Shown here: positions 22,029 to 25,818 of the stretch, one piece after another
Layout: every line of letters begins with the position of its first letter
Numbering within the stretch: the stretch's first letter is position 1
From: Actinomycetes bacterium
Lineage (GTDB): Bacteria > Actinomycetota > Thermoleophilia > Solirubrobacterales > 70-9
Direction of reading: 5' to 3'
Length of the DNA: 64,000 nt
NCBI GenBank assembly: GCA_016861045.1
Contig: BOKP01000001.1
Location: forward strand, 251,529 to 315,528
The notes under the pieces: model-generated
The model's database searches: none
What the model was told of the DNA's origin: nothing
What the model saw: the letters and a program-made list of their open reading frames with translations, nothing else
Made by a program: the position numbers and the translations under genes

Positions 22029-22108
22029 GCCAACCGGCCGCAGCTTTCGCCGGGCCGCCGTGTTCGATGTTCCAGCGACGCCGGTCCGCCGCCGCCGTCC
22101 TGAACCCG

Positions 22109-23119
22109 ATGAGCCGCTCACGACCGACACGAGCCACGCTGGCCGCCGCGCTGCTTCTGGCGATCGCGCTCCCGGGCGCCGCCGAGGCATCCCCGGCGCT
22201 GCTGCAGAACCCCGGATCGGCGGCCGCGATCCGCGACTACTGGACCAAGGATCGGATGCGGGAGGCGCGACCCCTGGCGCCGCCGGCGCCGCCGGCAACG
22301 CTGGCCGGGCCGGCGGAGCCGGCGGGCGCGCCGAGCTACGTCGCCCCTGCCGCCCCGGGTCGATCATCGACGCCGCGGCTGCGGAGCGGCGTGACGGCGA
22401 GGGGCGCGATCGCCGGCCGCGGAGCCGTCGCCGTCGCCGATCCGGCGGCAAGCGACGTCCGCGCCCACGGCAAGGTCTTCTTCACCGTCACCAAGGGCAA
22501 TGCGCCCGGCGACTACGTCTGCTCGGGAACGGCGGTCAACAGCCGCAACCGCAGCCTCGTCTGGACAGCGGGCCACTGCGTCTTCGACCACCACGACCGC
22601 GGCGGCCGGGTGGTGAACTTCGCGTTCGTCCCCGCCTACGACCGCGGTGAGACGCCGTACGGGACCTGGCCTGCGAGGAAGCTCGCGACGACGGGGCGCT
22701 GGCGCCGCGACGGCAACCTGCGCTTCGACGTCGGCGCCGCGATCGTGCGGCGCCGCGACGGCATCGCCCTGCAGGCGGTGGTCGGCGCCCGCGGGATCGG
22801 CTTCGACCAGCCGCGCAGGCGGGACTACTCGGTCTTCGGCTATCCGGCCATCGACCCGTTCGACGGCGAGCGCGAGTACCGCTGCGACAGTCGCTACCGC
22901 GGCGCCGATCTGCCCGGCGGTCCCGGGCCGAAGACCATGAGCCTCGGCTGCGACATGACCCGGGGGGCGAGCGGCGGCGGCTGGATCGCCGGGGGGACAT
23001 TGCTCTCGGTGACCAGCTACGGCTACAAGTCGGCCCCGGGCAAGCTCTTCGGGCCCTACATGTCGCGGACCGCGAAGAGGCTCTACAAGCGGGTGCGCGG
23101 CGCCGCCGTCCGTCGCTGA
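22109..23119 (+). CDS. Secreted trypsin/V8-like serine protease
   Basis: 336 residues from ATG 22109, chosen because it gives a clean Sec signal (MSRSRPTRATLAAALLLAIALPGAAEA); an in-frame ATG at 22067 would add 14 residues. A Pro/Ala-rich propeptide-like stretch (~60-100) precedes the protease domain. The triad is His in LVWTAGHCVF, Asp in RFDVGAAIVRR and Ser in MTRGASGGGWI. Two Cys pairs (VCSG..TAGHC and YRCDSR..LGCDM) probably form disulfides. The pattern is closest to glutamyl-endopeptidase/V8-type chymotrypsin-fold enzymes exported by actinobacteria. It stands alone between acs and the ThyX-like gene. Confidence 0.85.
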   Translation: MSRSRPTRATLAAALLLAIALPGAAEASPALLQNPGSAAAIRDYWTKDRMREARPLAPPAPPATLAGPAEPAGAPSYVAPAAPGRSSTPRLRSGVTARGAIAGRGAVAVADPAASDVRAHGKVFFTVTKGNAPGDYVCSGTAVNSRNRSLVWTAGHCVFDHHDRGGRVVNFAFVPAYDRGETPYGTWPARKLATTGRWRRDGNLRFDVGAAIVRRRDGIALQAVVGARGIGFDQPRRRDYSVFGYPAIDPFDGEREYRCDSRYRGADLPGGPGPKTMSLGCDMTRGASGGGWIAGGTLLSVTSYGYKSAPGKLFGPYMSRTAKRLYKRVRGAAVRR

Positions 23120-23192: not shown

Positions 23193-24803
23193 TCAGGGCC
23201 GCCCGGAGAGGGCCGCCCGCCTGCGGTGGGTGCGGATCTCGCTCATGATCCGCTCGAGCCTGGGCTCCGAGCTCGAGTCGACGTGGCGCATCGCGGCTCC
23301 GATCGCCGGGTGGACGGCGCTGATCTGCTCGTGCATGGCCTGTGCGACCGCGCGGTAGGTCGGATGGCCCTCGCGGCCGGAGCGGAGCTCGCAGACGTGC
23401 ATCGCCTCGCGTGCGTTCATGTCGAGGATGTAGCGGATCCGGTAGCCGAGACAGAGCGCGTAGGGCGCCTCCTCCTGCCTGCCCTCGTCCTCGAGCCGCT
23501 CGAACTCGGCGCGGGAGACCTCGAGCGCCCGCTCGTAGTCGCCGCCGGCGCCGGCGGCGACGACCTCGTCGGGCACGCCCGCCCCGAGATCCGGGGACAG
23601 CGACTGCCACTGACAGGTCAGCATCCGGTGCCGCTGCAGGTCGCGGAACCCGCCGTAGTCGGAGACGATCTCGAACCGGTAGCGAACCGCCTCCCAGCCG
23701 CGACCGGGCCGGTGCCGGCGGTTGCCGCGCCCGTCGGCCAGCTCGGCCAGGATCTGCTCGCGCTCGATCGGGTCGAGGGCGCCGATCCGGCGCGTGACCT
23801 CGGCCTCGGGGAGCCCGGTCGCCTCGTACAGCGAGGCGGCGAGGAGCAGGTCCTCGTCGCCGTCGACGTGGACGAGCTCGACCGCCGGCGCGTCGGGCCC
23901 CTCGCGGCGGTCGAGCCCGAGCCGCGCGACCCAGCGCTCGGTCGCCTCGCGGCGCCGCTCGAGATACGAGATCCACTCGCCGCCGCGCTCGGGGCGGCCG
24001 ACCCGCGAGATGAAGCTCGGGATCACCGCCGCGAGCTCCTCGTGCGCCATCGCACCGACCGCGCGGGCCTCCGGCAGCGGCGAGGCCGCGAGGCGGAGCA
24101 GGAGCTGCTCGTAGGCCTGACCCGAGGCGTAGATCCCGACGTGGGAGAGCGTCGCAGCCGGCAGCAGCCCGCGGAGCAGGTCGAGCGCCTTCGCCCTGAT
24201 CGACCGCTCCCATGCTGCCCGCGGCTCCTCGCCGCGCGGCCAGCGCCGCTCCGCCCAGGCCCCGACTCCGGCCAGCGTCCGCGAGTAGATCGTGAAGATC
24301 TCGTCCATCGCCCGCCCGAACGCGGGGCCGAGCTCCTCGTCGCGCCAGTAGCGCCAGCTCCCGGGCGAGCCGGGCTCGGCGCCGGGCTCGATCGGCGCGT
24401 CGTAGGGGATGTAGCGGGTGGACTGCTCGAGGTAGGCGGCGAGGCGGCCGCGCTGCAGCACCTTCGTGAGGACGTTGCTGACCCATTCGCAGGCGAGGTG
24501 GGCGCCGCCGAGCTGGGCCACCGAGTCGTCCCCGTAGCCGATGAAGACGCGCTCGTAGAGCTGCGCCGCGCGTTCACCCGCGGCGCCGTCGAAGGGCCGG
24601 CCGCCAGCCGGAACGTCGGCGGCGAACTCGTCGAGGTAGAGGCGTCGCAGCGTGCCCTGATAGCGCGAGTAGCGGGCGAACAGCGCCCCCTTCACCGTCT
24701 CCGGCAGGTTCGTGAGCGTGAAGACGGGCCGGTCGAGGTTGCTGAAGTGGGGCTCCAGCAGCAGCCGCTCTTCGTCGCTGAAGGTCTCGACCGGATAACG
24801 CAA
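23193..24803 (-). CDS. Two-domain ThyX-like (FAD-dependent thymidylate synthase fold) protein
   Basis: 536 residues, more than twice a normal ThyX. Two ThyX-type halves can be seen. The first (~30-300) has RGRLAAYLEQSTRY at 118-131, a copy of the ThyX signature RHRxxSxNExSxRY that keeps the EQSTRY end but has lost the His and Ser. The second (~320-520) has RHRMLTCQWQSL at ~391, which keeps RHR but has lost the NExSxRY end. It also carries ILDMNAREAMHVCELR (~460), like the ThyX LNARSLxHFLxLR block. The active-site signature is therefore split across the halves. It may make dTMP as a pseudo-tetramer, or be a flavoprotein with another role. Confidence 0.75.
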   Translation of the reverse strand: MRYPVETFSDEERLLLEPHFSNLDRPVFTLTNLPETVKGALFARYSRYQGTLRRLYLDEFAADVPAGGRPFDGAAGERAAQLYERVFIGYGDDSVAQLGGAHLACEWVSNVLTKVLQRGRLAAYLEQSTRYIPYDAPIEPGAEPGSPGSWRYWRDEELGPAFGRAMDEIFTIYSRTLAGVGAWAERRWPRGEEPRAAWERSIRAKALDLLRGLLPAATLSHVGIYASGQAYEQLLLRLAASPLPEARAVGAMAHEELAAVIPSFISRVGRPERGGEWISYLERRREATERWVARLGLDRREGPDAPAVELVHVDGDEDLLLAASLYEATGLPEAEVTRRIGALDPIEREQILAELADGRGNRRHRPGRGWEAVRYRFEIVSDYGGFRDLQRHRMLTCQWQSLSPDLGAGVPDEVVAAGAGGDYERALEVSRAEFERLEDEGRQEEAPYALCLGYRIRYILDMNAREAMHVCELRSGREGHPTYRAVAQAMHEQISAVHPAIGAAMRHVDSSSEPRLERIMSEIRTHRRRAALSGRP

Positions 24804-24870: not shown

Positions 24871-25818
24871 TCAGGCGTAGCCGAAGGCCCGGCGGTGGCG
24901 CTCGGTGGAGCGTCGCACGGCCTCGGCCTCCTCTGCGGTGAGGATCTCGCGCCAGCGCTCGTCGAGGACGATCTCGCTCGAGCTCGACAGGCGCATCCGG
25001 TTGCCGATGATGTGGTGCTCGCCGGCCAGGAACTCGTAGGGCCCGGGGAGCGGCTCGAGCCCGAGCAGCGCGCAGACCCGCCCGAACTCGCGCTCGGGAT
25101 CGGCGCACAGGTCCTCGTAGCGGACCCGCAGCCGGCGCTCGGGGGGCAGCGCCGCGAACAGCCGCTCGGCCTGGGCGCTGCGCCGGCTCCAGTAACGCGA
25201 GGCGTCGCCGACCCGCCCGGCCCGGGCGGCGCGGGCGCTCTTCCCGGCCCGGGACTTCTTCGAGGCGACGAACCCGAGCGCGTCGCGGACCAGATGGACG
25301 ACGTGGGGGGAGAGCGAGGTGGTGCGGTCGAGCTGCCGCGCCCGGTTGATGTTCTTCGAGGCGTCGACGAACACCGGCTTGCCGGTGATCGCCCGGGCGC
25401 TCGCCACCACCGCCTCGTTGCGGCGGGAGATCGCCCGGATCCGCTTGCCGAGGACCGGCGCGTGCTCGGCGACGCTGTCGCGGAGGGCGTCGGCGCGGTT
25501 GCTGCGCAGCGAGCTCGTGAGCGCCCGGCGGCTGAGGGCGTTCTCGGGGTCGAAGCGCAGGTCCCAGTGCTCGGGGTCGAAGCGCAGCCCGCGTCCGGCC
25601 ATCTCGACGCCCACCGCAGCCCAGAACGGGCACTCCGACAGCTTCGCCCCGCAGGAGCATGGGTACTCGCGGCGGTCGGTCACGCCGCGGAACGGGCCCG
25701 TCATCTCGCCGACCGCGACGATCTGCGGATGCAGGTTGAGGAGGAACGAGAGCAGGGTCGAGCCGGTGAAGGAGGTGCCGGCGATGTAGAGGAACCGCTC
25801 CGGTCGGCGGTCACTCAT
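24871..25818 (-). CDS. PAPS-type sulfotransferase family protein
   Basis: 315 residues. The N-terminal P-loop-like 5'-phosphosulfate-binding motif is LYIAGTSFTGSTLLSFLLNLHP (~10-30). The 3'-phosphate-binding region is VVHLVRDALGFVASKKSRAGK (~155). RVRYEDLCADPEREFGRVCALLGLEP (~225) is the usual late signature. The family transfers sulfuryl groups from PAPS to glycans, lipids or small molecules. A CSCG-type cysteine pair near residue 55 (YPCSCGAKLSECPFW) is an unusual insertion, perhaps a metal site. No PAPS synthesis genes are adjacent; the acceptor is unknown. Confidence 0.8.
   Translation of the reverse strand: MSDRRPERFLYIAGTSFTGSTLLSFLLNLHPQIVAVGEMTGPFRGVTDRREYPCSCGAKLSECPFWAAVGVEMAGRGLRFDPEHWDLRFDPENALSRRALTSSLRSNRADALRDSVAEHAPVLGKRIRAISRRNEAVVASARAITGKPVFVDASKNINRARQLDRTTSLSPHVVHLVRDALGFVASKKSRAGKSARAARAGRVGDASRYWSRRSAQAERLFAALPPERRLRVRYEDLCADPEREFGRVCALLGLEPLPGPYEFLAGEHHIIGNRMRLSSSSEIVLDERWREILTAEEAEAVRRSTERHRRAFGYA

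What the first reader, a model, noticed from the sequence alone, without database searches (positions are those of the whole stretch)
23193..24803. Two-domain ThyX-like protein with the catalytic signature split between halves
Half 1 keeps EQSTRY but has RGR in place of RHR and lacks the Ser; half 2 keeps RHR but lacks NExSxRY. ThyX active sites form at subunit interfaces, so the halves could complement each other as a pseudo-tetramer, or the protein could have a new flavin role.
Basis: partly seen in the sequence, partly recalled or inferred. Interest (0 to 1): 0.6.

Follow-up and report, generated by a model that had tools for sequence, protein, structure and literature searches.

The report
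Two-domain ThyX with shared active site
This gene encodes a double-length version of ThyX, the flavin enzyme that makes the DNA letter T; each half has lost the part of the active site that the other keeps, and in many bacteria it is the only thymidylate synthase that can be found.

Summary
In detail: ORF 23193-24803, minus strand, 536 aa, two Thy1 (PF02511) domains. One detail is wrong: half 1 keeps the catalytic Ser (S128 of EQSTRY). Both halves fold like ThyX (predicted models; Z 13 and 17). Published structures assign each ThyX site to three subunits: A gives RHR plus Arg174, C gives E86/S88/R90/Y91, B gives a Ser/Thr and Arg165 (T. maritima numbering). Across 95 two-domain homologues the C set is kept only in half 1; Arg78, His79 and Arg174 are constant in half 2 and His79 never occurs in half 1. 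B is mixed. The split holds even in phage and Bacillus-plasmid homologues at about 22% identity; half-to-half similarity indicates one ancient fusion. The host genome (97% complete) has no other ThyX, no ThyA, thymidine kinase or DHFR. All 28 further carrier genomes checked lack ThyA; in its class the two-domain and canonical forms exclude each other. Best reading: a genuine flavin-dependent thymidylate synthase working as a homodimer (pseudo-tetramer) with two composite sites instead of four. Databases already label it FAD-dependent thymidylate synthase. The quaternary arrangement is inferred. No held paper describes the split; Chlamydia ThyX may be a studied relative (memory only).

The parts
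23193..24803 (-). Two-domain ThyX-like gene, 536 aa, TTG start
   Evidence: two PF02511 stretches, E 1.2e-30; NCBIfam TIGR02170 thyX only 42.6 bits (cut-off 87.9)
23934..24803 (-). Half 1 (residues 1-290): ThyX domain carrying the C-subunit residues and the B-loop
   Evidence: Pfam E 3.4e-12 alone; hhalign to canonical ThyX E 2.9e-10; model pLDDT 87.6, Z 13.3 to M. tuberculosis ThyX, rmsd 3.3 over 197 residues
24522..24533 (-). GDDS (91-94), counterpart of GHxT/S (T. maritima G52-T55, M. tuberculosis S71), B-subunit loop
   Evidence: S94 constant in all homologues, in half 1 only
24411..24452 (-). RGRLAAYLEQSTRY (118-131): degenerate RHR followed by intact E126-x-S128-x-R130-Y131 (T. maritima E86, S88, R90, Y91; C-subunit set)
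   Evidence: C set weighted frequency 1.00/1.00/1.00/0.94 in half 1 versus 0.06/0.04/0/0 in half 2
23214..23906 (-). Half 2 (residues 300-530): ThyX domain carrying the A-subunit residues
   Evidence: Pfam E 2.4e-17 alone; hhalign E 2.7e-15; model Z 17 to ThyX structures, rmsd 2.3-2.5
23625..23645 (-). RDLQRHR (387-393): intact RHR (T. maritima R78-H79-R80), FAD/dUMP binding; no E-x-S-x-R-Y after it
   Evidence: R391 and H392 frequency 1.00; H79 counterpart in half 1 is 0
23382..23417 (-). NAREAMHVCELR (463-474): N163, R165 and the dUMP-activating R174 counterparts (R474)
   Evidence: R474 constant in all homologues

Best explanation
The gene encodes a fused, double ThyX that is the cell's thymidylate synthase: it makes dTMP from dUMP with methylenetetrahydrofolate, FAD and NADPH. 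After duplication and fusion, half 1 kept the dUMP-gripping and general-acid loop (E126, S128, R130, Y131) and half 2 kept the flavin-gripping RHR and the dUMP-activating Arg (R391, H392, R393, R474). In ThyX these two sets come from different subunits of one site, so two chains should assemble into a pseudo-tetramer with two complete composite sites and two dead ones. Shown: the domain content, the split and its conservation, the sole-synthase distribution. Inferred: enzymatic activity, homodimer, two sites per dimer. Which half supplies the third (B) subunit is open; half 1 is favoured because the GxxS loop is constant there, but N163/R165 sit in half 2 in the main clade.
For: Both halves are ThyX by sequence and predicted fold. 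Subunit map of one site: A = RHR + R199, B = S71 + R190, C = Q103/S105/R107/Y108 in M. tuberculosis (PMC6514825); S88 from one monomer and R182 (R174) from the other in the viral enzyme (PMC3498832). Residue table over 95 homologues shows the C set only in half 1; R78/H79/R174 constant in half 2. The split persists in jumbo phages and Bacillus/Paenibacillus plasmids. Each distant half scores best with its own half's profile: one fusion origin. Host genome: no second Thy1, no ThyA, no thymidine kinase, no DHFR. 28 of 28 carrier genomes across phyla lack ThyA and all their Thy1 matches are of the weak paired kind, G171 with several copies. In 150 class genomes: 60 two-domain only (1 with a ThyA match, partial), 73 canonical, 16 without Thy1 of which 12 have ThyA. 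Some carriers sit beside dCMP deaminase/dUTPase (phage) or dCTP deaminase. S88A, R90A and Y91A each impair T. maritima ThyX (PMC8316439), so half 2 alone should be poor.
Against: No activity, FAD binding or oligomer was measured. R80 and R174 counterparts are partly kept in half 1 too (0.58 and 0.60). The B-subunit residues N163/R165 do not follow one half consistently, so the geometry is unresolved. Absence of ThyA and kinase in the host rests on a 97% complete genome and PF00265/PF00303 searches only. Corynebacterium glutamicum ThyX is a known ThyX not required for dTMP synthesis (PDB title).
Confidence: 0.8

Rival explanations
1. A ThyX-derived enzyme with another uracil-nucleotide job, like the UMP/dUMP methylase PolB, rather than the housekeeping thymidylate synthase.
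For: PolB is among the structural matches (Z 14-15 for half 2); the NCBIfam thyX cut-off is missed.
Against: It is the only recognisable synthase in its host and in 28 of 28 other carriers and replaces canonical ThyX or ThyA in its class.
Confidence: 0.07
2. Only one half is catalytic and the other is a structural or regulatory remnant.
For: Pseudoenzyme halves are common after gene fusion; half 1 lacks RHR, half 2 lacks ExSxRY.
Against: Each half keeps the residues that the other lost; a remnant would not hold E126, S128, R130 on one side and R391, H392, R474 on the other constant.
Confidence: 0.07
3. The protein is inactive and dTMP comes from salvage or from an unknown synthase.
For: No activity data; host genome is 97% complete.
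Against: No thymidine kinase (PF00265) in the host; strong conservation and mutual exclusion with known synthases.
Confidence: 0.05

Closest known systems
Canonical ThyX (FDTS), T. maritima TM0449 and M. tuberculosis ThyX
   Same: Fold of both halves, RHR, ExSxRY, NxR and LR residues, expected FAD/dUMP/folate chemistry
   Different: About 220-260 aa homotetramer with four identical sites and all motifs in each chain; here one 536 aa chain with the motifs divided
Two-domain phage thymidylate synthases (Microcystis phage LMM01 gp020, PHROG 36506; jumbo phages BONAISHI, Yong, Tunturi_5)
   Same: Same two-domain layout and the same split of motifs; whole-length fold match
   Different: Very distant (20-30% identity); GHxS in place of GDDS, NxR in half 1 or absent
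Chlamydia trachomatis ThyX (Griffin 2005, cited in PMC8316439)
   Same: From memory only: also about 530 aa, with activity demonstrated
   Different: Sequence and paper were not available here, so membership in this family is untested

Membership tests
Flavin-dependent thymidylate synthase (ThyX, PF02511) | Thy1 domain above Pfam gathering score | tested here: met
   107.2 bits, cut-off 24.8; each half alone passes
Flavin-dependent thymidylate synthase (ThyX), canonical single-domain equivalog TIGR02170 | NCBIfam equivalog TIGR02170 cut-off | tested here: not met
   42.6 bits against 87.9; so it is not the canonical single-domain equivalog
Flavin-dependent thymidylate synthase (ThyX), canonical single-domain form | Whole RHRx7S..RY motif in one chain segment | tested here: not met
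   RGRx7S in half 1; in half 2 S401, seven residues after RHR, is variable in relatives and no R/Y follows; the full set exists only across halves
Flavin-dependent thymidylate synthase (ThyX, PF02511) | Catalytic set E86, S88, R90, Y91, R78, H79, R80, R174 present in the protein | tested here: met
   All present when both halves are counted
Flavin-dependent thymidylate synthase (ThyX, PF02511) | ThyX fold | tested here: met
   Half 1 Z 13.3, half 2 Z 17.4, well above unrelated rows
Flavin-dependent thymidylate synthase (ThyX, PF02511) | Tetramer with sites between three subunits | not testable with these tools
   No multimer prediction or coordinates
Flavin-dependent thymidylate synthase (ThyX, PF02511) | dTMP formation, FAD binding, rescue of thymidine auxotroph | not testable with these tools
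   Needs bench work
Classical thymidylate synthase ThyA (PF00303) | PF00303 match in the host genome | tested here: not met
   No match

The most novel reading that the evidence does not exclude
An entire ancient lineage of thymidylate synthases, spread over several phyla, plasmids and jumbo phages, works with half-sites: a fused chain whose two halves have divided the labour of one active site, with the two surrendered sites turned to another use such as allosteric nucleotide binding (the main clade keeps an invariant NRRHRPGR segment in half 2).
Probability: 0.2. Interest if true: 0.7.

Novelty: new variant of a known kind. Interest (0 to 1): 0.5.

Why it matters
It would be a clear natural case of active-site division of labour after gene fusion in an essential enzyme, and it would test which subunit supplies which residue in ThyX, a drug target. 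It also explains how many Thermoleophilia, Acidobacteria, Acidimicrobiia and Rokubacteria make thymidylate although the standard ThyX model misses this protein.

Tried and rejected
I first read H480 as the T. maritima H178 counterpart; profile alignment puts H178 on E478 and the residue is not universal, so it was dropped. The idea that the Vibrio Yong phages encode the halves as two genes was wrong: one 461 aa gene. The idea of independent fusions in the Bacillus/phage clade, from N163/R165 sitting in half 1 there, was rejected because each half scores best with its own half's profile. Conserved neighbours were sought: only lineage synteny (nuo genes in Solirubrobacterales, peptide deformylase in Acidobacteria), no functional partner. 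Griffin 2005 and Leduc 2004 are not held. Papers on two-domain ThyX: none found among those held.

Full report
The observation. The ORF at 23193-24803 on the minus strand encodes 536 residues from a TTG start. Pfam Thy1 (PF02511) matches it twice (E 1.2e-30), and each half alone passes the gathering score (47.0 and 63.8 bits against 24.8). NCBIfam's thyX equivalog is missed (42.6 of 87.9 bits), so this is not a standard ThyX. Half 1 reads RGRLAAYLEQSTRY, half 2 RDLQRHR with no ExSxRY behind it.

Both halves are ThyX domains. Profile comparison with canonical ThyX gives E 2.9e-10 for half 1 and 2.7e-15 for half 2. The model of the whole chain has mean pLDDT 85.5 and pTM 0.85; half 2 matches ThyX at Z 17.4 (rmsd 2.3 over 184 residues). 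Half 1, folded alone (pLDDT 87.6), matches M. tuberculosis ThyX at Z 13.3 (rmsd 3.3 over 197).

The split. In the published description of one ThyX site, subunit A gives the RHR motif and Arg199, subunit B Ser71 and Arg190, subunit C Gln103, Ser105, Arg107 and Tyr108 (M. tuberculosis numbering; PMC6514825); a viral ThyX agrees that Ser88 and the Arg174 counterpart come from different monomers (PMC3498832). Mapped on 95 two-domain homologues with weighting: the C set is 1.00, 1.00, 1.00, 0.94 in half 1 and 0.06, 0.04, 0, 0 in half 2. For the A set, R78, H79 and R174 are 1.00 in half 2 and 0.16, 0 and 0.60 in half 1; R80 is 0.88 in half 2 and 0.58 in half 1. So each half keeps what the other lost, and the line of division is the subunit boundary.

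How far it goes. Relatives at 46-88% identity occur in Solirubrobacterales, Acidobacteria, Acidimicrobiia, Rokubacteria and a Dehalococcoidia bin. More distant ones sit on plasmids (Euzebya, Miltoncostaea, a Parabacteroides record, Paenibacillus, Bacillus) and in large phages. Even those at about 22% identity keep the split. Every distant half 1 scores best with the main half 1 profile and every half 2 with half 2, which points to one fusion event.

It is the synthase. The host genome (2.70 Mb, 97% complete) has no other Thy1, ThyA, thymidine kinase or DHFR. In 150 genomes of its class, 60 have only the two-domain kind, 73 the canonical kind, one both, 16 none; 12 of those 16 have a ThyA match, while only one of the 60 does and that one is partial. 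The two-domain class was called by weak paired matches, and a few of the 60 showed only one match. In 28 other carrier genomes from several phyla ThyA was found in none, and their Thy1 matches were of the weak two-domain kind, with several copies in G171. A phage member lies by dCMP deaminase and dUTPase, a plasmid member by dCTP deaminase: enzymes that supply dUMP.

Mechanism. The simplest assembly is a homodimer that imitates the ThyX tetramer, with two complete sites made of half 2 (A) and half 1 (C), and two sites that cannot work. T. maritima S88A, R90A and Y91A mutants are impaired in the methylene-transfer step (PMC8316439), so neither half should suffice alone. Subunit B is unclear: its Ser/Thr (S94 here) is constant in half 1 in every homologue, which favours half 1, but N163 and R165 are in half 2 in the main clade and in half 1 in the Bacillus/Paenibacillus and some phage proteins. 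Assembly, activity and site number are inferred.

What is known. Public records already name these proteins FAD-dependent thymidylate synthase. I found no held paper that describes the division of the site. From memory, unverified, Chlamydia trachomatis ThyX, whose activity was studied by Griffin and colleagues in 2005, is also double length; if it belongs here, activity of the family is already shown and the novelty lies only in the recognised split.

Noticed in passing
L107, L108, L109 (canonical ThyX of three genomes of the class): Intein-like inserts of roughly 250-400 residues sit inside the RHRx7S motif: the insert starts at Cys just after RHR and ends VVHN before Ser.
   Followed up: partly
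Genome of L074 (G171, Dehalococcoidia bin): Seven Thy1 matches: three open frames of 538-603 aa each hold a pair of matches, i.e. several copies of the two-domain gene in one genome.
   Followed up: no
L062: Record titled Bifidobacterium breve MAG carries a two-domain ThyX close to the Acidobacteria-type relatives in rank (46% identity to the window protein); the bin name is probably wrong.
   Followed up: no
half 2, residues 359-368 (window 23700-23729): Segment RxNRRHRPGR is nearly invariant in the main clade although it replaces the canonical GHxT/S loop; possible new binding role of the surrendered site.
   Followed up: partly
L053 and other Acidobacteria-type loci: A peptide-deformylase-like gene (by eye, not searched) recurs next to the two-domain ThyX gene.
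   Followed up: no
window 22067-23119 (+) and 24871-25818 (-): Neighbours are a weak trypsin-like protein (below cut-off) and a sulfotransferase; nothing linked to thymidylate.
   Followed up: yes
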